This document shows, in pieces, positions 10,054 to 41,748 of a DNA stretch of 64,000 bases. Source of the stretch: Allodiplogaster sudhausi. Its lineage: Eukaryota; Nematoda; Chromadorea; Rhabditida; Diplogasteridae. The translations under genes and the position numbers were made by a program. The stretch is taken from assembly GCA_945643635.1 (NCBI GenBank), contig CALZFC010000256.1, forward strand, positions 1,231,001-1,295,000, read 5' to 3'. The notes beneath the pieces are model-generated. The model was given only the letters and a program-made list of their open reading frames with translations. It searched no databases and was not told the DNA's origin. How positions within the stretch are numbered: the first letter of the stretch is position 1; each line of letters opens with the position of its first letter.

Positions 10054-10748
10054 ACGCACTCTCTCTCACTCTCCATCTCTCACTCTCCATCTCTCACTCT
10101 CCATCTCTCACTCTCCATCTCTCACTCTCCATCTCTCACTCTCCATCTCTCACTCTCCATCTCTCACTCTCCATCTCTCACTCTCCATCTCTCACTCTCC
10201 ATCTCTCACTCTCCATCTCTCACTCTCCATCTCTCACTCTCCATCTCTCACTCTCCATCTCTCACTCTCCATCTCTCACTCTCCATCTCTCACTCTCCAT
10301 CTCTCACTCTCCATCTCTCACTCTCCATCTCTCACTCTCCATCTCTCACTCTCCATCTCTCACTCTCCATCTCTCACTCTCCATCTCTCACTCTCCATCT
10401 CTCACTCTCCATCTCTCACTCTCCATCTCTCACTCTCCATCTCTCACTCTCCATCTCTCACTCTCCATCTCTCACTCTCCATCTCTCACTCTCCATCTCT
10501 CACTCTCCATCTCTCACTCTCCATCTCTCACTCTCCATCTCTCACTCTCCATCTCTCACTCTCCATCTCTCACTCTCCATCTCTCACTCTCCATCTCTCA
10601 CTCTCCATCTCTCACTCTCCATCTCTCACTCTCCATCTCTCACTCTCCATCTCTCACTCTCCATCTCTCACTCTCCATCTCTCACTCTCCATCTCTCACT
10701 CTCCATCTCTCACTCTCCATCTCTCACTCTCCATCTCTCACTCTCTCC
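10054..10748. repeat. 14-bp minisatellite, about 49 near-identical copies
   Basis: The unit is CACTCTCCATCTCT, repeated head to tail for about 690 bp with almost no variants. It is flanked by less regular CT-rich DNA. The unit is not a multiple of three, so any frame repeats every 42 bp (14 residues). That explains the 295-residue Ser/Leu/His-rich frame, which is not a gene. The homogeneity implies recent expansion or strong homogenisation. Confidence 0.97.
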
Positions 10749-14950: not shown

Positions 14951-17900
14951 ATGAGATTCCTCTCGACTTATCGCCTTCTCTTCGTGCTTTCCTGTGCAAT
15001 TCTGCTCAGCGACGCTGGCAATTCGCATCCCAGAAGAAGGCTAAGGGGTAGGGTTTTACTTTTGTTGTTTATCGAAATCATAAAGAGAGTTGTATGTTGT
15101 TGTTTATTTCAAATCTTAAACAGGGATTTTGTCAAATATTTTACAAAAAATTTTTTTAATGAATATATTATTTGTATAAAATAGTACTTTTTCAGTCGAA
15201 ATATCTCTGAATTACAATGATTTAAGAGAGCCTCTCTGTAAGACTCAAGGAGGCCGCTATGGACGCCTGCCCTAGAAATTCATAACTTTTCTACAACCTT
15301 GAAAACGTTATGAGGGATGTATCTATTGTTCATAACGAAGTCTAGGCAGTCAGAAAGTTTAGAAAAAATTTTTTCACTTAGATATAAGTCGTAATGTTCA
15401 TAAATTTTGGATGACCATAACTACCGTTATACTCAATATTTCTGAATAATCTTTTCACTGTTAGATTCCTTGTTCAAAACTACACAAAAAAGTCCGTGGA
15501 GACCATTTTCGAAAAATTTAATTTATATGACTTTTCTCCAATTTAAGTTTTTAAAAAGTCGTTTTCAGGCAATAACTTTTTTTTTACTATTACGTCCAAA
15601 AAACTGAATGGTCCATGAGAAAGAGCAGGAAAAACTACACAGAATATGTTTTTGCGAGGAAAAATCTCGGATACTTTTTTTGGGTATCTGCATTTGAATA
15701 TGGGTTTCTGAGCAAATTTTGGCTTTGGCTGCAAACCATAATTTCTTTCAAACTTCATAAATTTTAAAACGTATTAGTCCATTCGATGTAATTTGTTATC
15801 CTCTTTAAAATGGTATATACTTTGTATGCAAACGAAATTAGTCTAAAGACCTAAAATTGACTTTTTGTGTTTTTGGCCAAATGCTGGTGTTAAAATACTC
15901 ATTCTTTGGATCATTAATGGGTCATATAGACCGAATTACCACATAATATTTATTATACAAGAAAGAGCAGTTAAAACTGAGTCGGGTACAGCTTTTTAAT
16001 CAAAATCTGAGGATACGTTTTTTGGGAATATGCATTTGAATGCTGACCGTTGAAGACGATATTGCTGCATATTTTTTGGCAATTATTTCAAATTAGTTCT
16101 TTTGAAACATCTAGCACCTAATAATATGTATTCCAGGATTCTTTGAAGTTCTTTCATGATATACCACTTAAAAGTACTCTAAAAGTCAAGAAATTTCATT
16201 TTTACGAGCCTAGAAGGCGAAATAAATGTATGAAAACTCCTTAGAAGCCAACTATCAGGGCATTTGTGAATCGGATTACCAAAAAGGTCATAACCATTCG
16301 AAAGAGCAGAGACTTTTACATAATATATCCTTCGATGAAAATGCAAAACCTGTACATTTTTAAGAAATCTTGAAATTTCAAAAAAAATCCACGAGATGTT
16401 TCGACTATTTTGAGCTGTTCTGCGAATGCTGGTACCAATGGAACTTATGTTCTGAAAACTGTGCCATTAGGTAGTTTGAGACGAGAAACATAAATTTGAC
16501 GTTGATTTTCTACTTTTGACTACCATCCATGGTACTTTTGCCAAAGGAATGAAATATAATATGCAGAAAAATTTCATTTCGATCAAGTGAACCATGGATG
16601 GTAGTCAAAAGTATAAAATCAACGTCAAATTTATGTTTGTCGTCTCAAACAACCTAATGGCACAGTTTTCAGAACATAAGTTCCATTGGTACCAGCATTC
16701 GCAGAGCAGCTCAAAATAGTCGAAACATCTCGTGAATTTTTTTGGAAATTTCAAGATTTCTTAAAAATGTACAGGTTTTGCATTTTCATCGAAGGATATA
16801 TTATGTAAAAGTCTCTGCTCTTTCGAATGGTTATGACCTTTTTGGCAATCCGATTCACAAATGCCCTGATAGTTGGCTTCGAAGGAGTTTTCATACATTT
16901 ATTTCGCCTTCTAGGCTCGTAAAAATGAAATTTCTTGACTTTTAGAGTACTTTTAAGTGGTATATCATGAAAGAACTTCAAAGAATCCTGGAATACATAT
17001 TATTAGGTGCTAGATGTTTCAAAAGAACTAATTTGAAATAATTGCCAAAAAATATGCAGCAATATCGTCTTCAAGGGTCAGCATTCAAATGCATATTCCC
17101 AAAAAAAGTATCCTCAGATTTTGATTAAAAAGCTGTACCCGACTCAGTTTTAACTGCTCTTTCTTGTATAATAAATATTATGTGGTAATTCGGTCTATAT
17201 GACCCATTAATGATCCAAAGAATGAGTATTTTAACACCAGCATTTGGCCAAAAACACAAAAAGTCAATTTTAGGTCTTTAGACTAATTTCGTTTGCATAC
17301 AAAGTATATACCATTTTAAAGAGGATAACAAATTACATCGAATGGACTAATCCGTTTTAAAATTGATGAAGTTTGAAAGAAATTATGGTTTGCAGCCAAA
17401 GCCAAAATTTGCTCAGAAACCCATATTCAAATGCAGATACCCAAAAAAAAGTATCCGAGATTTTTCCTCGCAAAAACATATTCTGTGTAGTTTTTCCTGC
17501 TCTTTCTCATGGACCATTCAGTTTTTTGGACGTAATAGTAAAAAAAAAAGTTATTGCCTGAAAACGACTTTTTAAAAACTTAAATTGGAGAAAAGTCATA
17601 TAAATTTTATTTTTCGAAAATGGTCTCCAGGGACTTTTTTGTGTAGTTTTGAACAAGGAATCTAACAGTGAAAAGATTATTCAGAAATATTGAGTATAAC
17701 GGTAGTTATGGTCATCCAAAATGTATGAACATTACGACTTATATCTAAGTGAAAAAAATTTTTCTAAACTTTCTGACCGCCTAGACTTTGTTATGAACAC
17801 TAGATACATCCCTCATAATGTTTTCAAGGTTGTAGAAAAATTATGAATTTCTAGGGCAGGCGCTCCTGGACCTTTACTGAGAGGCTCTCTTAAACACATT

Positions 17901-19330
17901 TCAGCAAAGCGTCACCAAATGAAAGCAGCTACAGTCATCACTCGCTACGTCGACTGCGGGCCGATTCGCAGTTTCTTGCGTGCGTTCAGAATTGCTAATG
18001 AACACGAGACAAAAAGCAAATAAAAACTTGCAAAACATTTATGCGATTTAGAAATGAAATGCGATCTAGAAGAACGTTTCGACGAGCTTTTGTGGTAGTC
18101 TAGCATGGCTGCTAAATTATAGTTCGCCTCAAAACGTAGCAGTACAGTAAGAGGCATCCAGCAATTTTCTCGAAAGTTTTAATTTACGATCGTTTCTTCC
18201 ATTTTAATTTGATGAAGAAATATTTTTTTTGGTTTTTCATGCCTGAAAGTACCGAAAATGGAGAAATTGAAATTTTTTAAACTGATACGAAAAATATTCT
18301 GGGATCTCTAAATAATTTCTTGTTTTTCAAAAAATTGCCCTTTTTAACTTTTAAAAAATTCTTTAGGTTTAAACAAAAAGTTTAAGTTACAATGCCGTTT
18401 CAAGGCCATCTAATGACCTACAATTGTTGGAATTTAATACACTCATAATAGAATACAGAAACGTTGGTTCGCATATATTGCGAATTGCCTGCGCGGTTTT
18501 CAACGGACACTGAAATGTTGTTAGGATTGCATACACGGACCTTTGTTGCAGAATTTCAATAATTTTTTTAAAATAATAATTTGAGTACCAGAGAACAGTA
18601 AAGATGAGTAATCACGCTAAAAACAATTCAGCTTGAAATACATACATCATATGCTTGGCGTCTCTGGCGTGATTTTCGTCTTTCTGCGGTAAATAGTCTA
18701 ATCCTTCACTTGTTTTAATGCTTTTCGTAGTACGCAAGCGATTTAAAGAGGTAGAGAGATTAGTTGCTTCGATATGGTATAAAAATATTTCCTTGAGAAG
18801 GAAGTAAGTAAAGTGTGACAGAAGAGACTGAACTACACTGACAGACGGTAGAAGTTGAATGCACTCTCGGAAAGGTTCATTAAGCAAATTACTTTGATTT
18901 AAAAGGCAAGTGTTTGTTTTTATCTCTGCAAGATTATGTACCAGAAGTTGCTATGCTACAGGTCACTGTGATAAGCCAAAGAATATCGACAGCAAGAACG
19001 CGGTTCGCTATCACCCGAATCAGTACCTCAGCTTCGGCGGCGAGGAGACGAAGAACACGAATCATAGCTCCGCTTCATGCCCATGTATGTACATACATAC
19101 TACATTATTAAAGAATCCTTCTATACGTAGATAAGTTTGTAGAAATAGTATGAATGTAAAGTAAATTAACGTTTTATAACTATGGTTTGTCATGTACTGA
19201 GATACAAATACTTATGGATTTAGACAGCCGTTTTATCAACCATTTTGGCGGACGCCGCCGCTACTTCTGCTGCTGCTCGCCCAGCCGCGGCTGCAACTAC
19301 CAGGTCGACGGCTGTCAAGTCACGTATTAA
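14951..19330 (+). CDS. SP1: secreted cysteine-rich peptide, cluster member 1 (133 aa)
   Basis: Exons 14951-15047, 17905-17979, 18962-19084 and 19224-19330; every junction is GT-AG and phase 1 is kept throughout. The start was chosen because AGAAGCATG and the following MRFLST match SP2 (MRLLST); an in-frame ATG at 14870 would bury the signal peptide. Residues 1-23 are a signal peptide. RRRLRAKR at about 28-35 is a furin-type basic site. Then come YVDCGPIR (47-54), RHC (58-60), ASCPYSRFINHFGGRRR and YFCCC ending at 115, followed by GCNYQ and DGC. The mature part has eight Cys: DCG, RHC, SCP, CCC, GCN and GCQ. Unlike SP3-SP5 it has no Gly/Tyr-rich block and no acidic EFTFE exon. Intron 1 (2.9 kb) is mostly a fold-back repeat. 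I do not recognise the family; defence peptide, matrix protein or signalling ligand are all possible. Confidence 0.7.
15221..17894. repeat. 2.67-kb inverted repeat (fold-back element) in intron 1 of SP1
   Basis: The left arm 15221-16533 and right arm 16591-17894 are near-perfect reverse complements about 1.3 kb long, separated by a 57-bp spacer. The outer ends begin TTTAAGAGAGCCTCTC on both sides. No coding capacity is seen; the short frames inside each arm mirror one another. Transcribed through, it would form a very long hairpin in the SP1 pre-mRNA. The TTTAA/TTAAA outer edges suggest insertion at a TTAA-like site. Confidence 0.95.
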
Positions 19331-19374
19331 GATTCCTCTCAAGGCTTACCCTAAACAAAAAAACAACTCTATGT

Positions 19375-19742
19375 ACTGTATTTTCTCTATTTGTGCCCCA
19401 CCCTCTATTAGAACCCTCTCCCTTCCAATAGTGCCCCCAAATAGCCTAATACCTCGGCTCGAGACGTACCTCGAATGAATCCTGGAGGCATGGGATGCTC
19501 TTCTCAATGAATGGATTGCAAATTCATTCGAAATCAATTATAAAACGGATATTCCTGTGATGATTCCATCGAATCCGAGCAACAAATCACTCTTTTAAAG
19601 AATAAAATGTTGTTAGCAAACATTTAGTCAATTACATTCAAAAATACCTCTCTCTCTAATAGAATCCCCCTCTAAGAGTGCCCCCTCTCACATGGCCATT
19701 AAAAGATAGTACCGCCGGGGCCCTAATAGAGAAAATACGGTA
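19375..19742. mobile_element. pogo/Tigger-like MITE, copy B
   Basis: It begins TACTGTATTTTCTCTATT and ends AATAGAGAAAATACGGTA, imperfect inverted termini flanked by TA. The interior has a decayed plus-strand frame (ILEAWDALLNEWIANSF, about 19480) that resembles the end of pogo/Tigger-type transposases. It sits about 45 bp past the SP1 stop, so it may supply 3'-UTR sequence. Confidence 0.7.
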
Positions 19743-22201
19743 AATTCAGCTTTTGAGAGACAACAAAAATCAGGAAAATTCAGATAAGTTGCGCTCCTTT
19801 AACCGGAATAATTTTAGTTTTACCAATATTTATTCTGGAATGAAAGTTATCAATATTTTGTATTTTAATCTACATATATTAATTTTTTGTCTCTGTTGTG
19901 CAAAGCTACATATCAGCGATTTCCGCGATATATAATACCCAGCAGACAGAGCCCATGTGATTGCACTAGCTTTCTGCATACATAAAAAATCAAGTCAGTA
20001 TATTGGGAGATTCATTATGCGCAAAATTTTTATTTATTGTACGTAGAGCCTTGACGAACAGAGCAAATCTTGCTATTAATATCATAAAATTGTAGATTTG
20101 TATTTTATTTATTTTGCTCACTTCTTCAGCCGCTCATCGTCATTACATGTATAATTCTTTTTTACAGCACTTTTAACGCGCTAAACTCATGCACCATTCG
20201 TCATCATTTATTGTCTTTTATTCTTCTTGCCTTGCATATAAAATCATTAAGCTTATTTACAGCAATAAAACAATCGTAGTTGGGGATCTTAAATTTTAAG
20301 AATAATTTTTTTTTAGAGAAATCTACAGCCAATATCGAAGCATTGCTATTACAGTTTTTAATGGATTTCTTTTTGTCGCCATTGCAAAGTTCAAAGGAAA
20401 AAAAGCATCTGTTAGAATACATAGCCCTTAACCAGTTTGCCACTTTCGCTATCAGCTCTAATCATATCAAGGCAGAGACTGACAAACGCAAGATGATAGC
20501 GAGGGAATAGGGGATAGAAAGGAAGCAAAAATCTTTCCCCGATCGAAAAAAATTTACTAAAGTTTAAAGGGGTCTTACACTTGCCCAAGGAAGAGAGAGG
20601 ATGTGATTTAGAGAGACGTGACTACAACGGTCAGAGAAAAATTATAAATATATATTACGATTAAATTACGTGCTCCTTTATGTAACATTGGAATCGGAAA
20701 AAAAAATCTTTTTTTTTTAATTATGGCTTAAGCATGATGATAAAATAATGTTCATAAAATAACGTTTCGAGGTATTTGGAAGCTGGAACTCAGCGAATTT
20801 TAAAGGTGAGTTACTCGATGTAGACGTAAATCGAGAGTATCAATAGATTACAATAAAGTAAACAAGAGGTGCGATTCCATGCCAGGGGTTATGCAAACAG
20901 CTCTAAGCATTCTAAATTAAGGAGCAAAGACGTTTATGTCCGCATGTTTACCAAAGGAAAAGTCGCATGATTTATATTCGTTGCCTCTCTCTATCTATCT
21001 CTCACATTCCTCTGTCTTTCTTTCAGTCTACATCTCTCTCTTTCTCTCTTCCTCTGTCTCTCTCTCTCTGCCTTTCTCTGTCTATCTCTGGTGCTATCTT
21101 TCTCTGTCTTTCATTCTTTCACTCTCTCTCTCAATGGATCACCTTCTTCTTCCATTTCTCATACTCCTTAAAGAAATCATATACGTATGAATGAATAAAA
21201 GACTGATTCGAGTTCAGAGAAAAAGTTTTTGCTGCATAAGTGATGACGTTCATGTTGGATCTGGATAAAAGTTACAAAGAAAAGAGGAAAAATAAACAAA
21301 GGATTCGTCGCGTAATATTCTAAAATCAAGGCTATGAGATGCGTGCTTCTTTTGAGAATTTCCTAGCTCCTTGAAATTCTCTAGAAAGCACGCATGTTAC
21401 GCACTTTTGTTAAATATTTCCATTTCATGTGTGATCATCACGCATGTTTACATTTCTTAATGACGGAGAGCTCTTCAGTTCATTCATCGTAAGAGGAAGT
21501 ATGCAAAATAATGGTAGGTACATACCGTAATTCTCGGAATTTTTTTCAACGAAACAATAGCTTTCTGCGGTGTGGGGGGAGGCGATACATGAGTTTCAAA
21601 TCCCGCCCTTTTCGTTATTCTTATTTTTAATCGTCAAATCGAGTAGTTCTCTTTATGATTCTGCATAGTTGTAGATCAGCACGGCAGTATAGTGCCGATC
21701 GCTATTATTCCAACTAGAAACATCCACAACGAATATTTTATAATACCTTAAAGGAGGTCTCCGGCGAATTAAACGTGTCTCGTTTCTCCGCCTTTTTATC
21801 AGGTTGAGCTAAAAAATTTCGATTGCAAGTGTACCGAAGTCACAAAAATCCCTCTACCCAGAGAAAATTAACAGTATTCTCTACCCCTCACGTCCTTTGA
21901 TAGAGGTAATATTTAAAATTCCCTCCATTATCAAAAATCTTAAGACAAAGCCACGTGGCCGACGAGGCCATTAGACTCCTATACTAGTAACGCATACATA
22001 CATACTGTGGGCGCAAGCGAAATTGGCAGGGTATTTCTCAATAAGTCCGCTCCCAAGCCAAATGTGTAACCAGAAATTTCTGTGGAGAGCCGAACTTTTT
22101 ACATTCATATCTGTCAAGGACTTTGTGGTATTAGTTTTCCCTTATGATCTCCCTTAATTTAGAGAAAAATTGTTGAGGGCAAAATGGTATACAGAAATTC
22201 T

Positions 22202-22234
<33 letters not shown>

Positions 22235-22672
22235 CCCTCTCTCTCTCTTGTGTCTCTCCCAGCCTCTCTGTCTCGATCTCACTCTCTCCCTCACAAGCAC
22301 AATACTCATCTTGCCGTCTCTATTATATTTTTGGAAGATGTATATTATTACTATAATTAATATTTACATCCAAGTTGAGCCAAAGTCGTACTTGCTATGT
22401 CCGCGAAAAATCATTCAGAACTTCTGGCGCGGAAAGTGTTGCTGACGAGTTTCTTCCAAAATTTTTTTAAGCTAAATCACGGGTCTTTGATTTACACATT
22501 TCATAGAGCAATATGTTTTTTTTTTTCAAAAAAAAAACGTATCGCTCAAAAATTTTCATAAACTAAATAAATTAATCTTGTTATACATTTTCACGTGATA
22601 TTTATGTTATAAATGCGACTGGGCTTCTTTTGTCTCTTCCTCAATTATGTTATGTCAATTCCTTCTAGAAGC
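19743..22672. other. Intergenic region between SP1 and SP2
   Basis: AT-rich, with CT tracts at 20985-21135 and 22203-22300, the second about 400 bp upstream of the SP2 ATG. It includes a copy of the short dispersed repeat and a lone MITE end (21749-21772). No exon could be supported. Confidence 0.5.
20568..20682. repeat. Short dispersed repeat, copy 2 of 3
   Basis: The core (20601-20682) shares GTGATTTA, GACTACAACGGTCAG and TTACGTGCTCCTTTA with copies 1 and 3. This copy is bounded by TTTAAAGG on the left and CCTTTA on the right, suggesting a very small TTAA-type MITE. Confidence 0.55.
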
Positions 22673-23544
22673 ATGCGACTCCTTTCTACTTCCTGGCTCC
22701 TATTGGCTACCGTAATCTTCAGTGCGATGGTTTATGGCGCGTCAAATCCGAGTAAATATTTGCGTTAAGAAAATTGTCCTATTATATTGTTTTGAAGGGG
22801 AGGATACCGCTGAGATTACTGTAAAATTGCATGCATTTCCAGAGCAAATTTAGAGATGCAGAGAGTGTGAAAAGTTTAGAAGCACAAAACATGAAACAGA
22901 ACATTTTAATATGATTTTTATTTGTATTTTTTTTAAATTTCGCTCTGCGCTATTAAATTTAACTTCTAGCAGAGCAGCATAAGAAAATGGCGATACCTTC
23001 GACCGTAATCACGCATTACGTCGACTGCGGGCCGATTCGGAAGATATTGCGTACGTTAAATAAAAATTTCAAACTATGTATAAATGTATACAGTATTTTC
23101 TCTATTAATCCCCCCTTTTATAAGAACCCCCCCCCCTTTAATAGTTGCCCCCTTTTATAATGTAATTGAAAATAAGGACCTCTCCCTCTAGTAGAATCCC
23201 CTCCCTCCTTTCAATTGTGCCCCCCCCCTCTAATAGTCTCATACCTCAGCTCGAGGAGAGCTACATACTAAGTTTCTACCTCGAAGAGGTCCTGGAGGCA
23301 TGGGATGCTCTTCCAAATGAATTGATTTCAAATTCATTAAAAAGTAATGGCAAAAGGGGTATTCCAGAGATGATTCCATTGAAGTCGAGATATTTGTTTT
23401 TAGAATAAAATTTAGTAATTAAACTTTTCGTGTTAAATAATAGGACCCCTCCCTCTAGTAGTACCCTCCCTCGCAAGATTTTGACAAATATGCAGTACCT
23501 CAGAGTACTAATAGAATAAATAGGGTTTTATAAATATGTCTATA

Positions 23545-23585
<41 letters not shown>

Positions 23586-23919
23586 TTATCTCAAATAATC
23601 GTAATATATGCAACTTTGTTAACACATTTTAGGTCGCTGCACGAGTCCAAATCTGACCGGCCTCCACACTCACATATACGCCAGCCTTGCCGGAAAGAAG
23701 ATCAACAGCAGCGCTTTTTGTCCATGTTAGAGTTTCATTTGAAATATCTATGCGCGCAAATATGGATAAAGGTAAGTTTGATGACACATAAATGGTAAAA
23801 TTCGCTGAGTCCACCATTACGCGGACCGCGTTTCTCCTTCATATAATTACATAATTATCAGATATTTAGACCGCCGCTTCATCGAACAATTTGGCGGACG
23901 CCTCCGTTACATCTGTTGA
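22673..23919 (+). pseudogene. SP2: decaying secreted-peptide paralogue, premature TGA in the CCC motif
   Basis: Exons 22673-22751, 22970-23050, 23633-23725 and 23870 onward; same structure and phases as SP1. Visible: signal peptide MRLLSTSWLLLATVIFS, then THYVDCGPIRKILRRC and INSSAFCPYRRFIEQFGG. In the last exon the motif that should read CCC is TGT-TGA-TGT, so translation stops at 23917-23919 after 100 residues. Beyond it, traces of the domain end (HQLDVG) continue in another frame, so there is also a frameshift. The donor after exon 3 (GTTAGA) is weak, and intron 2 has been invaded by a MITE. Either a pseudogene or a truncated peptide that lost the C-terminal disulphide domain. Confidence 0.65.
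23092..23526. mobile_element. pogo/Tigger-like MITE, copy C, in intron 2 of SP2
   Basis: It begins TACAGTATTTTCTCTATTA and ends near CTAATAGAATAAATAGGG. The plus-strand frame near 23280 contains LEEVLEAWDALPNELISNS, resembling the C-terminal part of pogo/Tigger transposases; the rest of the transposase is absent. An alternating TA tract follows at 23548-23582. Confidence 0.7.
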
Positions 23920-26147
23920 TGTTTCACGAATCGGGCCACCAACTCGACGTCGGCCTAGAGTGACTGGCTAGACACAATTTAAAAGAGCCATAAACCCACT
24001 TTTAAATTCGCGCTCTTTCTAACGAATAAAGCGCGCGAGAATATGTACAATCTTGATTTAAAAAAATGATTAAGGTAGAGAGTTGACATACATATATGTA
24101 TGTTGACGTATACGTCTGAAGTCATTGCTGTCTACAAAAGGATTCATATTTATTTTGTCTTTGTTTATTAATATATTTGCGACCATTTTGCATAGCGAAG
24201 ATAGTAATCGTACATTTATTATTATTTCTAACATTAAAATTTTGTTGTTGCGCTGGATCCGTTGAACACTAATTGTGTCGGATAAACTTCTGGATTGTTA
24301 TTTAACAAGTAATGGGGTGAAAAGCAAAAATCAATAATTAAACAATTACCTATCAGTTTGCTGCAAACTTGCAAACAGATACGTTGGTCTCACTTGCTTA
24401 CAAAAGTAGTCGAACAAAATTTTTCCCTATCGAAGCTTGACTTTTTTCCCTGCTGCCATGGAATGTTGTATTGGGAGCAAGGGTGGGCAAAAACCGGCCC
24501 GGACCAGGCCCGCTAATGTATATTAGGCCCGGGCCGGGCCGTAAAATTCACCAGCGGGCCGGGCCGGGCGGCGGGCCGCCCACCCCTGATTAGGAGCTAC
24601 ATATGTATGTCGTCTAGTCCACAGATTTCACAAGGCATTCAAAGGACGGTTATAATGGTTCTGTACTCGCTTAAATGCGTTTAATCCCATTATTGTATTT
24701 ACGTAGACATATATATCTCAGAATATTAAACATTCGTGGCAGCTTGTCAATACAAGTTAATAATCCTATCTCTTTCTTCTCGTGATCGTTTGGTTGCGAA
24801 AGTACAAGTGTTTAACACCTGCAAGATGCGGAAGAGTTAGCCAATCAGCTACATTCTAGGCCATAGAGGTCAGCGCAGGCAAAATGGAAAGAATTCGCGC
24901 GCGAAACAGAGAGAGATGTGAAACAATGAGTTCGGAAAGAGAGAAAGAGAGTGCGACGAGAGGACGGAGAGAAAGAGAAAGAGAGAGAAAGACATATAGA
25001 GAAAGAATGGGAAATGTTCGGCCAACAACGGAAAGCAGGTCGCACGCAACAGGCCATGCCGCCCTGCATTCCATCTGCGAAACATCATCAATGTGATATC
25101 GTTCGTACCAAACTATACTCTCACGTGAGTAAGCCAATGCTTGTAGAAATACGTCGCCCAACCCTGATCTCTCTTTCTCTCTCCATCTCTCTCTCTCTCC
25201 CGATTCAGCCGACAGTAAGCGAGTAAAGACAGAGAAAGAAAGGGAGGGAGAAAACGTTGACTGAGGTGAGAGACGAGTAGAAAGGAGCAGAACGGCCGTT
25301 TATGAGATAAAGAAAAAACTGAATGAGATCATGGAATCAGATATGGGAAGCGAATAAGATGGAAGGATAGAGAGCGAGAGAAAGAGAGACAAAGAGGGAG
25401 AGAGAGAGAGTGAATAAAGGAAGAGAGAAAAGAGAGAATTCAGAGTTCGCCCAAGAGGAAGCAGCATTCTTAGCGTCCTGTTGGCGGCTAATGCACAAAG
25501 ATAAATGGGCCATGTGCAGCGCTTGCGATGTATGGATGGAGATATTTTTCCTTGAGAGGATTAGAGCTGGGTGAAGAGGGGAAAACAGAGAGAAACGAGA
25601 GGGAAAAGGGTAGAGCAGGAAGTAGTAAGAAGGAGAGAGGGAGAGACAGCGAGAGAGAGAGAGAGAGAGCGAGAAAGAGGTAAGAGAGAAGGGTCTTTTG
25701 ACCACCTTGCAAGTAATAGGGCAATAGAGCGTTCAAGAAAGGAAGTAAGAATGAGATAGAGAAAAAGAAAAAGAAAGAAGAAAAGAGCGAGAGTGCAAAT
25801 TGCATGCATTCATAGTCGACGTGATCAGTCCGCTGAACAGAGCATCTTCGATAGCACCACGAAATTATTTAAGGTAAAAGGTCGCAAAGCTCAATGGACA
25901 TTTTGATCTCATGTGACACTTTGGTGGGTGTTGTTATTTTTTTGCGCGTTTTATGGCGTAAAGCCAAAATTATGAAGAAAAATAATAATGAGAATATTAT
26001 ATTTCGCGGTTTAACCCCAAAACAAGCTTTAAAATAATTATAATATAATAATATTTCGCGGCGTAACTTATATTATTATAATTATTAATATTATATTATT
26101 ATCATGCATGAAGAATTTCTAGTTCCAATCACAGAGCCGATATCAAG
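23920..26147. other. Intergenic region between SP2 and SP3
   Basis: Holds the small hAT-like MITE at 24478-24588 and polypurine blocks (24900-25010, 25230-25440, 25560-25800). No exon could be supported; the Arg-Glu and Ser-Leu frames follow the repeats. Confidence 0.55.
24478..24588. mobile_element. 111-bp GC-rich hAT-like MITE
   Basis: The ends are CAAGGGTGGGC and GCCCACCCCTG, an inverted pair with one mismatch. They are flanked by the 8-bp direct repeat ATTGGGAG / ATTAGGAG (24470-24477, 24589-24596), with one mismatch. An 8-bp duplication and CA...TG ends are typical of hAT elements. The interior is GGCCCG-rich and self-complementary, in strong contrast with the AT-rich surroundings. Confidence 0.75.
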
Positions 26148-27272
26148 ATGCGCGCATCAATGGCGATGATTCTTCTCCTCTCGCTGGCCCTCCTGCCACT
26201 GATCGCTGGCGGCGGCAATTCGACAGATTCTAGCGAACGTGCCGTTGCAGCGATATTATCAGCGCCCACTTCTGACTCCGACACGGTCAACGGCACAACA
26301 AAGTACTCTTGTCTACAACTTCAAGTTCATTCAAAAACCTTCTACAAGCGTGCGAATTCTGACACTAAAATTGAAGATATGTTGCTCTATTTGTTGTACG
26401 AAAGCATGAGAAAGACTTTTCCCTACTTTCAGCTCAACATCAGACGAGTTCACGTTTGAGAACGGTGAAATGAAACGCAAGTTGGTGAGAGGTAAGCCAG
26501 TTTTTGTGTCATTCAAATTTTGTAGGTCAATTGATCCCTGAATGATATATACAAAATAGCTATTCGCTTTTGTCTTTATTTATATCTATTTATTTATCTC
26601 GGTTATGACGACAAAACACTGATGGTGAGAAAATATTATATATTTATAGCCAAACGATCTTCGTCGTCTTCAAGCAGTACTTACTACGTGAACTGTGGAC
26701 CGATTCGCCGCTTGTTCCGTAAGAAGCTAATTGTTTTTCTAAACATTTATTTTTTCTACTATTGTTTACACTTATTTTGTTTGAAATTGAATTTTTCTTC
26801 AAAAGATATTTTTTTTTCAATGCAATCTCATTGCTAGGCCGCTGCTCGGGTCCGACGCTCATACGTGCCGATGTCTACAAGGCGTACAAGCACTATTATT
26901 ATGGCGGATACGGAGGCTACTTTTATCCGTACACCAGCTATTACGGCTATTACAACAACAACAACTATGGTGGATACGGGGGATACGGCGGATACGGTGG
27001 ATATTATGGCCAGAGCAACAGCTACTGCTCTTGTCAGTTGCAAACAAAAGGAGAAGAAGAGTTCACACAAACGTATTAAAAGTCGAAATTAATTTGTTTA
27101 ACACTAGAAGAATGATACGTAAACATTTGAAGAAAAAAAAACAAAATAGTTTACAGACAGCCAATTCATCGACTACTACGGCGGCCGCGCCCGCTACTAC
27201 TGCTGCTGCGGCGGTGCAGGCTGTAGCTACCAGTTCGATAGCTGCCAAGTCGCGTACGGTGGCAAGAAATAA
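26148..27272 (+). CDS. SP3: secreted Gly/Tyr-rich cysteine-rich peptide, cluster member 3 (197 aa)
   Basis: Exons 26148-26302, 26433-26491, 26650-26718, 26838-27032 and 27157-27272; GT-AG throughout, with phases 2,1,1,1. Signal peptide 1-20 (MRASMAMILLLSLALLPLIA). A Ser/Thr-rich propeptide and an acidic exon (DEFTFENGEMKRK) lead to VRAKRSS, a furin-like site. Then come TYYVNCGPIRRLFRRC and a Gly/Tyr-rich stretch of about 45 residues (YGGYGGYGGYGGYYG). The end is SYCSYSQFIDYYGGRARYY-CCC-GGAGCSYQFDSC-QVAYGGKK. The mature part has eight Cys. This member carries every module of the family, so it looks closest to the ancestral organisation. GY-rich secreted peptides are known as antimicrobial, cuticle or shell/silk matrix components in invertebrates; which applies here is unknown. 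Confidence 0.75.
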
Positions 27273-28734
27273 GCGGCATAGTCATTTTAATTTAGAGTTT
27301 CATCGATTTGCTCTCGCAAAAATTAAACAAAGATATATTTTACGAATTCGATTAAATTTCCTTTTTTGGACTTTTACTGTAAAGGAGTATACTACATACA
27401 TACATACCTATATAGTTTTTTTTTCTGTTTTGCTTTCTTTTCTTGCAACGATTGGTGCCACGCCCATGATATTTATTGACTCTTCTCGCCTCATATTCTT
27501 GAACGAGGTTAATGATTAATGATAACTCTGGCTGTTCTACCACTATAATGACTATGTGAACCTATATGTATACAACGATTGGCCAGCTCGGCCGTGATAT
27601 TTATTGATGCTCTTGAAAGACGTTGACATGTAAGGCCGATGGGATTTTGGCGAAATTTTCTCTCGTTATCCTATGAATTTCACGTGCTAATAAAGATTTC
27701 AGTTTACTATTTATGTTGGCACTTTTAGTGTAAAACATAGAAGGAGAAATTGAAATCGAAAGCGAGAAATCTAAAGAGAAAAAGAGTAAAAGACAGCAGA
27801 ATATAAAAATCGCTCTCGTTCTGGCAGGCAACGAGAGAGGAAGAGAATAAAAGACGATGCGAACTTTTGAACGCTGTCCAAGAAAGTAATTGTGATGAGG
27901 AAAGGGAATGCAATCAATGGAAGAGTGCGAAGATATTTTAAGGGGCACGAAACCCGACTGTAGTCTATTTGAATTTCCCGATTATCGAACAGGCGTCTAT
28001 TACATACATATATTTCTAACACGTTTTCATTCCTAGCCTTAACTCCAGTTGAATGTGCATATTTAGCAAAGATAAGTAAGATGCGATGTCCGTGTTGTAC
28101 TAAGTGGACAAAGAGCAAGTAATGCACGGGTTTTTAGACACAATCTTTGCACACTAAATAACGGCTAACACATGCATGATCTGAGCCTGTTCTTCTTCCT
28201 TGCATTATACAGGATTAAAATATATAGTACACATTACGGACGCTACTTTCCATGCGCATAAAATCACCTAAAGTTTTAGCGCTTCAAAGTAATCATACAT
28301 ATGCCTGATGAGAAAGTAGATTATTCGGAAAGAGAATTTCACTAGCTGCATATCATGATATCAAAATTGAACTTTATTTTTTCATGATATTTATACATTC
28401 TTCATTAAGAAACATCTCATTTGAAGAGTTTGACGAATTTGCAGCAACCTAGACTATTGGCGTTTGGTACAAACTAGAACTGCTCGATTTTGAGCATTGT
28501 GGTCGCGCTTGTTCGCTGTTCTAGTCAGACGGAGATTCGGCATTCGCTGAATTGGCGAGAAGAAGGAAGAACAGGCGACTGGGCAGCTAATGCTAAGGCC
28601 ATCTCGAGCAGAGATCCACATCGGAGAAGGCGAACAAAGCGGACAATGTGAATGATACAATAGGACTGCACAAGCGAAATTAGCGGGGGTCGGTGGTCCA
28701 GAAGAGCATTGAATGAAGCAATAGAGAGAGAGAA

Positions 28735-28786
<52 letters not shown>

Positions 28787-29078
28787 TGTTAGAGAGAGTG
28801 CGAATTCAAGAGACGGAGAGTGAGTAGTAGAGTGGTAGAGGCGACAATTAAGAGGAAAAGATGACGTGACTCGGAATCGCTGATCAAAAGTGTCCTTCTG
28901 CTAAACAACGCACATTTCCTAACGTTAGGGTATTTAATTCCAATCGTCTGTGGTGCAACAACACGTGTGTGTGTGTATTTTCTTCCGTTTTGTAGTGCTG
29001 CAAGCCTTCTTCTCCTCGTTCACTTTCATCGATCAGTTTAATTTCCATTCTTTCCCATTCAAAACTATATTTCAGAAA
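27273..29078. other. Intergenic region between SP3 and SP4
   Basis: AT-rich with a (GA)n tract at 28719-28800, about 280 bp upstream of the SP4 ATG. Frames on the minus strand at 27601-28127 have no signal or splice support. Confidence 0.5.
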
Positions 29079-30506
29079 ATGCTTCCTGCCCTGACTCTTT
29101 CGCTTCTTGTGCTCCTCATTCTCACACAATTCGCACTTGGCACAGGGAACCACTCGCTGCCCGAAGAGCCCTCCAATGTACAAGAGAAGAGTGTCGCTAC
29201 CGAAGGGTGCGTGATATTCATTCTTGTGAAGTCAAGAAATGACCAAGCTCGTTAACTTATAATAGAACAGTAAACTTTTACCGTACGCTTTAACGCTGAA
29301 AGCTCTCTCAAAAAAGGTGCCTCCGCAATTAGCAATTAAGCATTACACCCTCAATTAATAATGCTGTGAGACAAAATTCTTTAGATTGTCGTCGTCTGAA
29401 TTTACGTTTGAAAACGGCGAAAAGCGACGAAGGCGAACGAGAGACAAAGGTGATTTTCTTTTTGGTGATCGCACTCCTTGCAATGAGTTTTTTTTAAAAT
29501 AAACATATCTCGAGTATGCAGTAATCGGCTTTTACGCGTCAAGGCCTTTACGTATGTCACTTTTGATCTACAGGTGGAGATGAGAAATTACAACTCGTTT
29601 GCTACCTGGAACAAAAAGGAATGAAATACGCTTTAGCGCAAAAAAAAAGAAAAATGGAAAACAAACACACCCCTTGCAGTCATTTAGTTCATAATAACAA
29701 TTTACATTTGTTGTAGTCACATTGAAGTTTTAATAAATAGTAAGTTGGTCTAGTAAATAAAATTTATTTTCTAGAAAAGCGATCGGGGAGCGGTGGCGGC
29801 GGAGGCGGTGGCGATGTCGGCGGCGGCACTTCTGGAGGCGGCGGTGGGAATTCGGCAGGGGGCGGAGATAACTACGCCAGCTCCAATGACTACACTTACA
29901 CTTACATCCCATCCTACAACTACCTCTACATTCCGTCAGCGACGAGCAGCGCCAGCAGCTATTACGGACGATACTACGGTGGAGGTTACGGTAGCAATTA
30001 TGGACGATACTACGGTGGTTACGGCTACGGTGGCTATTACAATCCGTACGGTAGCTACTACAGTAACTATTACAACTACCCGTCTAACTATTATAACTAC
30101 TACAACACGAACAGCCAGCAGAGCGGCGGAGGAGGCTACTACTGCTCGTGTAAGTACATAGTTTGAGCGCATTTGATTGATAGCACTTGAGAAAAAGATG
30201 CAGAGACATGGGTGTTTCATTGTAACCTCTTGTTGGGATCTAGTAGAGAGAAAGAGAGAGGGTGACTGAGAAAAGAGATGGAAAAGATACAGAGAAAATT
30301 ATTTCATTTTCAGATGCCTAATTAACTCTGTTGTATTAAGCATTGAAAACAAACAATCGTGGAAGATAATTAATTCCCCTGTTTCAGACTCCCAGTTCAT
30401 CGACTACTACGGCGGCCGCGCCCGCTACTACTGCTGCTGCGGCGGGACGAGCGGCTGCACTTATCAGTTCGACAGCTGCCAAGTCTCGTACTATGGCAAG
30501 AAATAA
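29079..30506 (+). CDS. SP4: secreted Gly/Tyr-rich cysteine-rich peptide, cluster member 4 (228 aa)
   Basis: Exons 29079-29206, 29385-29449, 29775-30149 and 30388-30506; phases 2,1,1. Signal peptide at about 1-20 (MLPALTLSLLVLLILTQFAL). Exon 2 gives SSSEFTFENGEKRRRRTRDK, and the next exon starts EKRSG, so several basic cleavage sites precede the mature peptide. The long exon 3 encodes a poly-Gly block and then a Tyr-rich block built on YYG, SYY, NYY and GYG units. The end is YYCSYSQFIDYYGGRARYY, CCCGGTSGC, TYQFDSC, QVSYYGKK. The YVNCGPIR exon of SP1-SP3 is absent, together with its partner RC, leaving six Cys. Confidence 0.75.
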
Positions 30507-31623
30507 TCTGACCACTCCTAACATTTTGTCTCTATCGAGAAGACAAAATGAAATTGCTACGCCCATCTAAAAAACCGCTTGACGCTCTCCTCGAGGAATT
30601 AAAGTGCAAAAGCACCTTTATGTATATTTTTTTTATACTAAAAGAGAATCCACAATTTCGGCGATTCCTTGAAGTTCTGTGTATCCTTTTAAAATTACCG
30701 AACAAAATCGCTTCAGATGGCAACTTAATTGTTTTACATTTACATATTTTCTCGCTCTATCAAGACTTGTTCACGATTTAAGGCAATAAAAGTATCTTGC
30801 AAGTTTGTTTTGGCAACGGTTGTGTGCGATGCTAAATAGCCGCTCCGCCAGTAGAGCGTTGCGAACGAAAGCGGCGGAGAGAAACGAGTTCGCAGAGATT
30901 CATATGATATCTGTCGAGAAACGGGCAGACTAGGAGAGATTTGGTAAGAGGCAGGAAAAGCGAATGGAGTTTGCACAATTTGATAAGACGAAGAAGAAAG
31001 GGACGGCTCCGTGAATACAATGGAGTTTTGATGAAAATGATAGAGACTATGGCGGGAGATAAAGATGAAAGTTCGGGATGGAGAGAAACAGCGCAAAGGA
31101 GATTGGGTAGGGCGTGGAGCGAGAGTGAAGGTATTCGAAACTGCATAAGGGAACAGAACATGGAGAGGAGGATGAGAAGAGAATCACAGAGAAGACGACG
31201 AGAGGAGTAAGGAAGGATGGTAGAGAGCAGTAAGAGGAAAAGGGAAGTAAAGAGAGCGAGCGACAGAGAGAGAGAAAGAAAGTGAGAAATAAATGGAGTA
31301 AGAGAGAAAGAGAGAGACAGCGAGAGAGAGCGAGAGAGAGAGAGAGAGAGAAAGGCAGAGAGAGTAGCGCGAAGTTGGTCAAACGGATAACATCTGCTGA
31401 AGAGAGCTACCTCGCAAGTATTTGAAGGTAGTGGGAGACAATTAAACGGTTCAACAGTCAAGATGATCTCGTGTTTTCTATCGCATTGCGAACGAAAGTT
31501 CCGTGTCGTTCCATTCAGTGGACCAGCGATCATTTTATTTATAATTGATATTAAATGCTAATGTATTATTTGTTCTTATTTAATATTTAAAAAAGCATTA
31601 ACATTTTAGTGACTCTTAACGCT
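30507..31623. other. Intergenic region between SP4 and SP5, with GA tract
   Basis: Polypurine DNA from about 30940 to 31365, densest at 31245-31365, about 260 bp upstream of the SP5 ATG. The minus-strand Ser-Leu frames come from this tract. No exon could be supported. Confidence 0.6.
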
Positions 31624-33056
31624 ATGCTTGCTTCCACTGTTTTTACACAACTTCTCCTGCTTTCCTTGGCACTTCTCGTGGTGGCCGAGAAGAGGAGTAC
31701 TACAAAGTGCATCAATGCGAACAACAAATCGACAAAGTCTGGCAGATATTTTTTCTTCACTTTTTTTTGCTTACTATTAAAAAAAAAAGTTTATATGCTT
31801 GCGCTTATTCACAAAGTAAACAGATATACATACATATGGACAAAAAAAGCAGTTTCTACAATGATATTTTCGCGATTGCTTAGGCCATCGCAGCGCGAAT
31901 TCACCTTTGAACACGGAGAAAGGCGACGGAAGCGATCGGCTAGTAGAGGTAGGCAAATTGTTCTTTTAGCAAATATTTCGTAGCTTTTAGCGAATCGTTA
32001 GTTCGGTTAAAATTTTCTGCAACCATATTTTGAATGTAATAGTATCCTTTCATTTTCTTATTTTCACAGTGTTAAGATTAAAGGCAACAACTTCAACGTC
32101 AAAATATAGTGGTCGTATAATTACTAATATATAATTCTGGAGAGAGAAAAAAAGAAGAATATTTTCTAGCAAGGCGAGGCGTATCGTCTAGCGCGGGCGG
32201 CGGGGGCGGGGGCGGAGTGACTTCGAGTGCGCATGGTGGTGGAGGTGGCTACACGTCTAGCGCGCATGGTGGCAGTGACCGGTGAGACAACGGGAACATT
32301 TTAAGAAGGCACAATTTTTGGGACAATTGCAGAAGTGACAATTGTTCTTCAATTTTCAAGTTAAGGAACATTAATTCGGGAGGAAATTTTTTTAGAGACA
32401 ATTTCGTTGACAATTAGAAGGGCCTTGTATGGGTACTTGTTGGAGATATGAACATATGTACATAATTTGGTTTAGGAAACTTTAGTCACAATCCTGAGCA
32501 ATAATGACTTTTAATCTTGACAATTTGGTCGACATTTACAGGAGTGACGATCATTACGCGTATCAGTCATGGTCAACATGGGACATAACACCTGTAGACA
32601 CCTTCAGCACCAGCAGCTCAAGTAGTTCGAGCAGCTACTATGGAAGATACTACGGAAACAACTACTACGGAGGATACGGATATAACGGCTATTACAACGG
32701 CTACTCGTATCCCTATAATAACTATTACAATTACTACAACCGCAACTACTCGCCATACAACGGCTACTACGGAAACTACTATAATGGCTATAATAACAAT
32801 AATTACAACAACAACTATAATGCGTACTACCAGCAGAACACTTGCTCGTGTAAGAATGTTTACTTTATTCAATATGCTTTCAATTTATGGTATTAATTAC
32901 AAAAGTATTGAAATGTAACTATCATAGTAGACAATTAGTTAGTCTGTTTCAGACAGCCAGTTCGTCGACTACTACGGCGGCCGCGCCCGGTACTACTGCT
33001 GCTGCGGAGGCACCACCGGATGCACTTATCAGTACGACAGCTGCCGGGCTGTGTAA
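31624..33056 (+). CDS. SP5: secreted Tyr/Asn-rich cysteine-rich peptide, cluster member 5 (233 aa)
   Basis: Exons 31624-31736, 31884-31948, 32170-32281, 32542-32849 and 32953-33056; phases 2,1,2,1. Signal peptide MLASTVFTQLLLLSLALLVV. Exon 2 gives PSQREFTFEHGERRRKRSAS, with basic sites continuing into ARRG. Exon 3 is Gly/Ser-rich with a repeated YTSSAHGG-type unit. Exon 4 is Tyr/Asn/Gly-rich (YNGYYNGYSYPYNNYYNYY). The C-terminal domain is TCSYSQFVDYYGGRARYY, CCCGGTTGC, TYQYDSC, RAV. Six Cys in the conserved domain; an extra Cys (KC) lies in the propeptide. The CGPIR module is absent, as in SP4. Confidence 0.75.
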
Positions 33057-33822
33057 GCTTGGAAGGAATTGGCGGAACCATAAAGAAAATGAACGACTTG
33101 ACCGGGTCTCAATGAAAAAAAACCTTGTGAATAATTCGATGTTGTCCTCTGTTGCTACGATGTCCCACTTGACTGACCAAAAACCAAGCTCTAAATGTTG
33201 TATAAGGACGTGCTAAAATGAATTCGCTCTTCTCTACTTCCTTATTGAGCTGTTGTATTATAGCGCTGACTAAGCGACGTCTGAAGTATGCCAATATGGG
33301 TTTTCATAAAGGAATACGATGAATTGTAGGTCACACTTAAAACAATATATAAATGAACCTGACAATGAGGGTTGATAGGTCGAGTGAGAGGGAGAGAGAA
33401 AGAGAAAGAACGAGAGAGAGAGAGAGAGAATGACAGGATTAGAAAGCGAGAGAAAGCGAGAGAGATAGAGAACCAGAGATCGAAAGAGAAGGAGAGAGGA
33501 AACTTATGGTTTGAGATCAAGGAAAACGGGAAGAGATCCTATTTATCAAGTAGATTGATAACTACGACCTCGAACTAATCGTGATTCTCGTTTTCTCTGA
33601 ATATATCAGCATAAAATACAGGTTACACATATCAAGTAAACGCGTACGTACATAGTAGGTCACACTTTATCACTAACATCAGTATTCCCATATGCGCTCA
33701 CTGTTTTATCTATAAGAAGTACTTGTAGATCAAGCTGTTATAAACTAGCTTGTGTTCATCAGCATATTAATTGCATGTGTCTAATAAATAGAAGACTCTA
33801 ATAAATATATTTTTCAAGATGC
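33057..33822. other. Intergenic region between SP5 and SP6
   Basis: Contains a polypurine tract at 33380-33500, about 330-440 bp upstream of the SP6 ATG. No exon could be supported. Confidence 0.5.
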
Positions 33823-34866
33823 ATGCTTCACCAGCCGCTTCTATTACTACTATTCATCCTTGCGCTTACTTGCTCCGCCGAGAAATCGTCAGAGCCGTTT
33901 AATATAATTATTACACAAAACACCCGAAAATGATTTGTAATATTAAAAAAAGACTATTGATTAAAAATTTTTTTAAAGCTTTTCTAATGACGCGCGCGAG
34001 ATGCACCATTTAATGAGGCGGAAGCTGCTGCTGTTCATCAAAACAGGTAACACTATTACAACGTTTGAATTTTAAATTTTACCGCCCACAAGCATCCTCG
34101 TGACCACAGGAAAGCGGTCTCGAGATGCGCCGTGGATGGTGAGAGAGTGCACATCACGGATGATGCGGCCCATTCGACTATTGATCGGTTAGAGATATAA
34201 AACTGTTTCCTCCTTGCTAGAAAGCAACTGCTCAATTATGTTTTTTTCAGGTATAGATTTCAGGTCATAATTCTAAAAAAAATATATATTTTTTAGATGT
34301 CCAATCAGTTAAAAGCACTCTAAGGAACCAAAAACTCAATCCTGAAATACGCGCGTTTTGTTGATGCTGAGAGAGACGAGACTAGAAAATTGAGGGAAAT
34401 GTCATTAAATTACGCCAGACTTCCATCCACCTTCATTTTTAAAAACGTATTCCTTTGAACTTCAACAATACGCTGCAACACATTTGTTTGAAGGTGCTTG
34501 TCCATCGGGAAGTTTCGCCAAGTTTCGCATTGATGAACCAACAACGTCTGCGTATTTTTACAGCAACAACGCTTAACGCAATAATCATTGCTATTGTAAG
34601 GACAGTTGATAATTTGCACGTATTTCAATGAGATGAGAAATTTCTTAATTAAAGTTTTAAGGATTGGAAGAGCGAGAGTGCGAGAGAGAGAGAAAGAGAG
34701 AAAGAGAGTGAGAGAGAAAGGGAGAGATTCTCATTTTGAGAGATTCTCATCTCGTTTCATTGACTTCTTCGCTGGTCGCGCGCGCTTCTACTGTTGCTGC
34801 CGAGATGGCAAAGGCTTGAACGGATGCACTTATCAGTTTGATGAGTGCCGGTCGACAATTTTGTAA
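33823..34866 (+). CDS. SP6: divergent secreted cysteine-rich peptide, cluster member 6 (137 aa)
   Basis: Proposed exons 33823-33887, 33979-34046, 34110-34187, 34297-34359 and 34727-34866; phases 2,1,1,1 match SP3. Signal peptide MLHQPLLLLLFILALTCSA. Exon 2 (SNDAREMHHLMRRKLL) occupies the place of the EFTFENGE exon. GKRS is the cleavage site. Exon 3 ends MRPIRLLIG where other members read CGPIRRLFR. The last exon reads YSHFERFSSRFIDFFAGRAR-FYCCC-RDGKGLNGC-TYQFDEC, keeping the terminal domain but with a seven-residue insertion that looks like a local duplication. The CGP, RC and CPY cysteines are missing and a new Cys (REC) is present, six in all. The last acceptor follows a GA tract instead of a pyrimidine tract, so exon 5's start is the weakest call. 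Confidence 0.55.
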
Positions 34867-41698: not shown

Positions 41699-41748
41699 AT
41701 TAGTAAATAAATCCGGAAATTCCATTGGCATGTATGTGATAAATGTAC

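What the first reader, a model, noticed from the sequence alone, without database searches (positions are those of the whole stretch)
14951..34866. A tandem cluster of six secreted peptides forming an apparently undescribed family
Seen: six same-strand genes over 20 kb. All have a signal peptide and an exon-encoded C-terminal domain of the form Y-S-x-F-I-x-x-x-G-G-R-x-R-Y-x-CCC-x(4-9)-C-x-Y-Q-x-D-x-C, broken by a stop in SP2. SP1 and SP3-SP6 have basic cleavage sites, SP3-SP5 a Gly/Tyr-rich middle. The terminal exon always joins in phase 1. Known: GY-rich secreted peptides occur among invertebrate antimicrobial and matrix proteins, but none I know carries this CCC domain. Inferred: a rapidly evolving preproprotein family spread by tandem duplication and exon loss.
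Basis: partly seen in the sequence, partly recalled or inferred. Interest (0 to 1): 0.88.

Follow-up and report, generated by a model that had tools for sequence, protein, structure and literature searches.

The report
Modular disulfide-headed secreted peptide cluster
A 20-kb stretch of DNA, likely from an invertebrate, carries four gene copies with intact reading frames, one broken copy and one likely broken copy of a peptide family with the same cysteine-rich tail; the peptides are predicted to be secreted and would most likely work as defence peptides at the body surface.

Summary
Six same-strand copies of one terminal exon (the CCC domain) lie at 19.2-34.9 kb; a profile built without SP1 and SP6 still finds both (E 5e-13, 9e-14), and the reversed window gives no hit at E up to 0.5. 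Four copies (SP1, SP3, SP4, SP5) splice into complete precursors: signal-peptide-like start, basic site, arm, six-cysteine head, terminal exon in phase 1. SP2 is broken by a TGA in the CCC codons. The head is C-x16-CCC-x(4-8)-C-x6-C. SP1 and SP3 carry an extra C-x9-C pair; SP4 and SP5 lack both cysteines, so they likely form one detachable disulfide. The head is under purifying selection (dN/dS 0.03-0.21 in 8 of 10 pairs); the arms differ. Pfam, NCBIfam, PDB, a 5.8-billion-protein set and two contig collections gave no relative, but much of that is prokaryotic or viral, so novelty is unproven. Best reading: a birth-and-death cluster of secreted defence peptides, with GY-rich arms as in the C. 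elegans nlp-29 cluster and a disulfide head as in hyastatin. A structural matrix is a close rival. No expression data.

The parts
14951..15047 (+). SP1 exon 1: signal-peptide-like start and basic pro-region (HPRRRLR)
   Evidence: ends phase 1, donor GTAGGG
15221..17894 (.). 2.67-kb near-perfect inverted repeat filling SP1 intron 1 (foldback-type element, TTAA just inside both ends)
17905..17979 (+). SP1 exon 3: (R)AKR site, RYVDCGPIRSFL (C1)
18962..19084 (+). SP1 exon 4: RHC (C2), polar arm, SCP (C3); not GY-rich
19224..19330 (+). SP1 exon 5: CCC domain, ends QVTY stop
22673..22751 (+). SP2 (broken copy) exon 1: signal-peptide-like start
22970..23050 (+). SP2 exon 3: HYVDCGPIRKIL
23633..23725 (+). 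SP2 exon 4: RCTSPNL to SSAFCP
23870..23958 (+). SP2 exon 5 relic: RRFIEQFGGRLRYIC then TGA (23917-23919); no C-x-Y-Q-x-D-x-C after it in this frame
26148..26302 (+). SP3 exon 1: signal-peptide-like start, pro-region; ends phase 2
26433..26491 (+). SP3 exon 2: EFTFENGEMKRKLVR
26650..26718 (+). SP3 exon 3: (R)AKR site, Ser run, YYVNCGPIRRLF (C1)
26838..27032 (+). SP3 exon 4: RRC (C2), GY-rich arm with YGGYGGYGGYGG, YCS (C3)
27157..27272 (+). SP3 exon 5: CCC domain, ends YGGKK stop (amidation-like)
29079..29206 (+). SP4 exon 1: signal-peptide-like start, pro-region; ends phase 2
29385..29449 (+). SP4 exon 2: SSEFTFENGEKRRRRTRDK
29775..30149 (+). SP4 exon 3/4: EKR site and GY-rich arm, YYCS (C3); no C1/C2
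30388..30506 (+). SP4 exon 5: CCC domain, ends YYGKK stop (amidation-like)
31624..31706 (+). SP5 exon 1: signal-peptide-like start; ends phase 2
31884..31948 (+). SP5 exon 2: REFTFEHGERRRKR site
32598..32849 (+). SP5 exon 3/4: Ser run and GYN-rich arm, TCS (C3); no C1/C2
32953..33056 (+). SP5 exon 5: CCC domain, ends CRAV stop
33823..33900 (+). SP6 (likely relic) exon 1: signal-peptide-like start, similar to SP5 (AEKSS)
   Evidence: its end is not defined, the coordinate given is approximate
34520..34595 (+). SP6 exon-4-like piece with TAA before NNHCY; its start is not defined
34747..34866 (+). SP6 CCC domain; no AG at the family acceptor place, GA microsatellite upstream

Best explanation
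This is a tandem birth-and-death family whose four intact copies encode precursors that are predicted to be secreted and likely cut at a furin-type basic site to release a peptide made of a variable arm and a C-terminal six-cysteine head, and which would most likely act as a host-defence peptide at a body surface. The sequence shows the signal-peptide-like start, the basic site (RAKR in SP1 and SP3, RRRKR in SP5, EKR in SP4), the arm (Gly+Tyr 45-55% in SP3-SP5, 10% in SP1) and the head C-x16-CCC-x(4-8)-C-x6-C. Inferred: three disulfides lock the head; C1 and C2 (C-x9-C, cationic in SP3) form a fourth, separable loop, because SP4 and SP5 lack both together; SP3 and SP4, which end in G-K-K, are trimmed and amidated; the arm self-associates or binds a surface polysaccharide while the head gives stability and target binding. 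The host organism is not identified.
For: Six homologous copies in 20 kb on one strand, one broken and one likely so. Complete spliced models with shared exon modules. Head under purifying selection, dN/dS 0.03-0.21 in 8 of 10 pairs. Predicted mature SP1 and SP3 are cationic: SP1 +8.1; SP3 +7.4, or +5.4 if G-K-K is trimmed; each has 8 Cys. YGGYG occurs in SP3, SP4 and SP5, the motif that PMC6780910 (passages) shows for nematode nlp and caenacin defence peptides; [quoted passage not shown] elegans. PMC2866484 (passages) describes hyastatin, a Gly-rich arm joined to a six-Cys C-terminal domain needed for its antibacterial activity. C1 and C2 are lost together in SP4 and SP5.
Against: SP5 is nearly neutral (+2.4) and SP4 is +0.4, or -1.6 if G-K-K is trimmed (before the gain from amidation): unusual for membrane-active defence peptides. 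Tyr at 24-29% of SP3-SP5 fits cross-linked matrix proteins as well. The nlp-29 cluster shows excess non-silent change in four branches (PMC2453101, passages), whereas the head here is constrained. No relative of known function was found. The AlphaFold model of the head is weak (pLDDT 66, pTM 0.30) and was not compared with other folds. The pro-regions of SP1 and SP5, and weakly SP4, are basic rather than acid (segments chosen by eye). No expression, processing or activity data.
Confidence: 0.4

Rival explanations
1. Structural matrix or adhesive peptides: the GY-rich arms self-assemble and cross-link through tyrosine, and the six-Cys head oligomerises or docks the chains, in a cuticle, eggshell, cocoon or glue.
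For: Arms of SP3-SP5 are 45-55% Gly+Tyr with Ser and Asn runs; low charge in SP4 and SP5; the head, not the arm, is conserved, as expected for an assembly domain.
Against: SP1 (and the SP2 relic) keeps the head but has no GY-rich arm; a furin-type site and two G-K-K ends are more usual in defence or signalling peptides (established knowledge).
Confidence: 0.35
2. Processed signalling peptides (neuropeptide or hormone-like): dibasic cleavage and C-terminal amidation yield a disulfide-rich ligand.
For: KR or RKR sites in 4 of 4 intact models and G-K-K ends in SP3 and SP4.
Against: Long low-complexity arms in SP3-SP5, arm content differing between copies, G-K-K absent from SP1 and SP5.
Confidence: 0.1
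3. Gland products used on other organisms (venom-like or secretory effector peptides) diversified by tandem duplication.
For: Conserved cysteine scaffold with variable neighbours, tandem array, broken copies.
Against: Residues between the head cysteines are mostly conserved rather than hypervariable; host and tissue unknown.
Confidence: 0.1
4. Gene-prediction artefact: repeated open frames without real transcripts.
For: No RNA evidence in hand; junctions were picked by eye for GT-AG and phase, so their agreement is partly by construction.
Against: Exon GC 0.48-0.54 against intron 0.22-0.39; dN/dS well below 1 in the head; modules found independently in several copies by pattern and tblastn.
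Confidence: 0.03

Closest known systems
C. elegans nlp-29 cluster and caenacins (GY-rich epidermal defence peptides)
   Same: Tandem cluster of six small GY-rich peptide genes, YGGYG motifs, duplication and different structure between species (PMC2453101, PMC6780910; passages).
   Different: As I recall, those have no six-Cys head. The nlp-29 cluster shows excess non-silent change in some branches, while the head here is constrained. Sequence homology to them was not tested directly.
Hyastatin, penaeidins and type II crustins (crustacean defence peptides)
   Same: Gly-rich (hyastatin, type II crustin) or Pro-Arg-rich (penaeidin) arm before a cysteine-rich C-terminal domain, six Cys in hyastatin and penaeidin (PMC2866484; passages).
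   Different: No Pfam family reached its cut-off, and neither a penaeidin nor a WAP row appears among the four sub-threshold rows at E up to 10. The CCC triplet and the furin-type pro-region differ (recalled for the known families).
GY-rich eggshell, cuticle and adhesive proteins (flatworm eggshell, mussel foot proteins; recalled)
   Same: Tyr- and Gly-rich secreted chains.
   Different: As recalled, those lack this head and the basic cleavage site; SP1 here has the head without a GY arm.
PDB 'proteinase inhibitor' 1ytp and 1fyb (potato type II kind, as I recall)
   Same: A 14-residue look-alike around CC-x-G-T-x-G-C-x-Y, the best PDB row for the head profile (1ytp); 1fyb at E 3.9.
   Different: E = 1.6 and only 14 residues; treated as chance.

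Membership tests
nlp/caenacin GY-rich defence peptides | GY-rich with YGGYG or YGGWG motifs | tested here: met
   YGGYG in 3 of 4 intact models (SP3, SP4, SP5), not SP1
nlp/caenacin GY-rich defence peptides | Basic mature peptide | tested here: inconclusive
   SP1 +8.1, SP3 +7.4 (+5.4 without G-K-K), SP5 +2.4, SP4 +0.4 (-1.6 without G-K-K) at pH 7
nlp/caenacin GY-rich defence peptides | Sequence homology to nlp/cnc proteins | not tested
   No nlp or cnc sequence was fetched; the protein-set searches gave no relative
nlp/caenacin GY-rich defence peptides | Induction in epidermis by infection or wounding | not testable with these tools
   No expression data
Hyastatin/penaeidin | Low-complexity arm followed by a six-Cys C-terminal domain | tested here: met
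   SP3, SP4, SP5; SP1 has the six head Cys but no low-complexity arm
Hyastatin/penaeidin | Match to a family profile | tested here: not met
   No Pfam family above its cut-off for any of 5 queries; the 4 sub-threshold rows are other families
Type II crustin | C-terminal WAP (four-disulfide core) domain | tested here: not met
   No WAP row in Pfam at E up to 10 (HMMER's filters drop most rows above about 0.1)
Amidated prohormone-type peptides | Dibasic or furin-type cleavage site after the signal peptide | tested here: met
   Present by sequence in 4 of 4 intact models; cleavage itself not tested
Amidated prohormone-type peptides | C-terminal Gly-Lys/Arg amidation signal | tested here: inconclusive
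   SP3 and SP4 yes, SP1 and SP5 no
Selenoprotein (for the SP2 TGA) | SECIS element downstream | tested here: not met
   No Rfam family at gathering score in the window; the conserved residues after the TGA are also lost

The most novel reading that the evidence does not exclude
A new disulfide scaffold, C-x16-CCC-x(4-8)-C-x6-C, is used as a constant head onto which one locus splices interchangeable arms and a detachable cationic C-x9-C loop through phase-1 exons: a modular surface-defence peptide system specific to one invertebrate lineage, joining an nlp-type GY-rich arm to a disulfide head in one molecule.
Probability: 0.35. Interest if true: 0.62.

Novelty: new variant of a known kind. Interest (0 to 1): 0.46.

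Why it matters
If right, it adds a small, genetically encoded disulfide head whose spacing no profile library searched here describes, and a clear natural experiment: the same head with and without a GY arm, and with and without the C1-C2 loop, in neighbouring genes. That makes the roles of arm, loop and head separable by synthesis and assay. It also shows exon-level modularity in a secreted-peptide cluster.

Tried and rejected
Selenocysteine for the SP2 TGA: it stands at a conserved Cys codon, but no Rfam family, SECIS included, reached its gathering score and the downstream Cys pattern is gone; rejected in favour of a broken copy.

SP6 as a sixth working gene: no acceptor AG at the family place, GA repeat there, TAA in the exon-4-like piece. 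Use of some other acceptor cannot be excluded from sequence alone; left as likely relic.

Homologue searches that found nothing: SP3 head region (no candidate sharing three words), four-row alignment A1 (6848 candidates, none at E up to 10), SP1 residues 33-133 (no candidate), GTDB genomes (32 pattern matches, none confirmed), IMG/VR (43 pattern matches, none confirmed). PDB by sequence: only rows at E 0.93 or worse. NCBIfam none at E up to 1 (A1 rows). GTDB, IMG/VR and NCBIfam are prokaryotic or viral and the animal content of the protein set is not stated, so silence is weak evidence.

Organism: no tRNA gene (ARAGORN, bacterial code) and no Rfam hit; the PARP exons do not place it. Foldseek was not run because the head model is weak.

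Literature: the searches listed no paper that I recognised as describing such a family; I saw listings with the starts of abstracts, plus passages of PMC2866484, PMC2453101 and PMC6780910.


Full report
What was checked. The finding names six same-strand genes at 14951-34866 sharing a CCC exon. A six-frame scan for CCC followed by a further Cys gave 8 rows: five family members on the + strand (19268, 27201, 30432, 32997, 34792) and three unrelated ones; a broken sixth copy lies at about 23875. To avoid circularity I left each of the five readable members out of the profile in turn: each was still found at E 8e-14 or better, and SP2's fragment at 0.0004 to 0.004. Leaving out SP1 and SP6 together still gave 5e-13 and 9e-14, and SP2 0.011. 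The reversed window gave nothing better than 0.12 in any run; one unrelated real frame reached 0.33.

Gene models. Four genes splice into full reading frames. SP1: 14951-15047, 17905-17979, 18962-19084, 19224-19330; 133 aa. SP3: 26148-26302, 26433-26491, 26650-26718, 26838-27032, 27157-27272; 197 aa. SP4: 29079-29206, 29385-29449, 29775-30149, 30388-30506; 228 aa. SP5: 31624-31706, 31884-31948, 32598-32849, 32953-33056; 167 aa. All 13 introns are GT-AG. The first intron is phase 2 in SP3-SP5 and phase 1 in SP1; all others are phase 1. Junctions were chosen by eye on phase agreement between paralogues, not by a trained splice model, so that agreement is partly by construction, and no transcript was available. 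Independent support: exon GC is 0.48-0.54 and intron GC 0.22-0.39.

Modules. Exon 1 is a signal-peptide-like start. Exon 2, EFTFE(N/H)GE plus a basic run, was found in SP3, SP4 and SP5 only (+ strand 14-36 kb). Exon 3, with YV(D/N)CGPIR, was found in SP1, SP2 and SP3 only (whole window, both strands). Exon 4 is GY-rich in SP3; in SP4 and SP5 one exon begins like exon 3 (EKRS, or a Ser run, the latter a weak tblastn match at E 0.028) and goes on GY-rich; in SP1 and SP2 exon 4 is polar. Exon 5 is the CCC exon. SP3, third of six, carries all modules. The basic site sits at the exon 2/3 boundary: RAKR in SP1 and SP3, EKR in SP4, RRRKR in SP5.

Cysteines. The last Cys of exon 4 (CS or CP) and the split Tyr codon extend the domain: C3-x16-CCC(4-6)-x(4-8)-C7-x6-C8. 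SP1 and SP3 have two more, C1-x9-C2, in exon 3 and at the start of exon 4. SP4 and SP5 lack both, which suggests, as inference, that C1 pairs with C2 and that the remaining six pair among themselves. SP3 ends YGGKK and SP4 YYGKK, which looks like an amidation signal (inference from known precursor processing); SP1 and SP5 do not.

Composition and selection. Predicted mature peptides: SP1 98 aa, net +8.1, 8 Cys; SP3 123 aa, +7.4 (+5.4 without G-K-K), 8 Cys; SP4 161 aa, +0.4 (-1.6 without G-K-K), 6 Cys; SP5 122 aa, +2.4, 6 Cys. Gly+Tyr of the whole mature peptide is 14, 42, 50 and 41%, of the arm alone 10, 45, 55 and 45%. Over 25 aligned head codons, dN/dS is 0.03-0.21 in 8 of 10 pairs; in the other two (SP1-SP6, SP3-SP6) dS is saturated. 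SP6 was thus likely under constraint for much of its history. Few codons are involved, and gene conversion between SP4 and SP5 is possible (84% DNA identity runs from 30338 in the intron into the exon). The short exon 2 and exon 3 blocks also show more change per silent than per non-silent site in every pair (10-11 codons each).

Broken copies. SP2 has TGA at the middle Cys codon of CCC and has lost the later C-x-Y-Q-x-D-x-C pattern. SP6 has a TAA in its exon-4-like piece and a GA microsatellite where the acceptor AG should be.

Relatives. None in Pfam (4 sub-threshold rows over 5 queries, the best E 0.0015 to an unrelated mitochondrial family), NCBIfam, PDB by sequence, the protein set, GTDB contigs or IMG/VR. 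The genome search did not complete (and ten repeats). GTDB, IMG/VR and NCBIfam are prokaryotic or viral and the animal content of the protein set is not stated, so absence there says little about animals. The organism is not identified; multi-intron genes and PARP exons say eukaryote, and the peptide type suggests, as inference, an invertebrate animal.

Structure. AlphaFold2 on the five-row exon-5 alignment gave three short beta strands at mean pLDDT 66 and pTM 0.30. This is a hint only; the model lacked C3, which lies in exon 4.

How it likely works. Shown by sequence: secretory-type start, basic site, arm, head, tandem copies with decay, constraint on the head. Inferred: furin-type release, disulfide-locked head, surface defence. 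The two nearest working analogues are the C. elegans nlp-29 cluster, six genes for GY-rich peptides that raise resistance to a fungus when present in extra copies (PMC2453101, abstract and passages; a single nlp-29 null showed no marked change there), and hyastatin, Gly-rich arm plus six-Cys C-terminal domain, the latter needed for killing (PMC2866484, passages). Against this, SP4 and SP5 are near neutral or, for SP4 after trimming, slightly negative, and very Tyr-rich, which fits a cross-linked matrix almost as well; I give defence 0.40 and matrix 0.35.

Novelty. As a combination (furin-type pro-region, GY arm, CCC six-Cys head, optional C-x9-C loop) it matches nothing I could search, but the kind, a clustered family of small secreted peptides, is well known. 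Hence new variant of a known kind, interest 0.46.

Noticed in passing
window 15221-17894 (+/-): A 2.67-kb near-perfect inverted repeat (arms 97-99% complementary in three ungapped pieces, 43-nt spacer) fills 94% of SP1 intron 1, with TTAA just inside both ends; its right end lies 10 nt before the exon-3 acceptor, so the intron RNA would likely fold into a long hairpin and part of the 3' splice signal may come from the element.
   Followed up: partly
window 50602-50961 and 60495-60737 (+): Two PARP catalytic-domain exons (Pfam PARP, E 1.8e-9 and 8e-9) with similar-looking neighbouring frames: likely tandem PARP genes.
   Followed up: partly
window 19401-19672 and 23184-23472; 131-310 against 19553-19742: A dispersed repeat just downstream of SP1 and inside SP2 (69% identity over 300 columns), with a further inverted match at 131-310; it could have helped unequal crossing-over.
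   Followed up: no
window 44703-45110 (-): An open frame rich in cysteine (CAGINDCGGKSC, CSCGEALCN), no Pfam match at E up to 0.01; perhaps an exon of another secreted protein.
   Followed up: no
window 8900-10780, 41150-41700, 53230-54100 and others: Very long CT/GA-type simple repeats that read as SLSLSL or ERERER frames; one GA repeat overlies the SP6 acceptor region.
   Followed up: no
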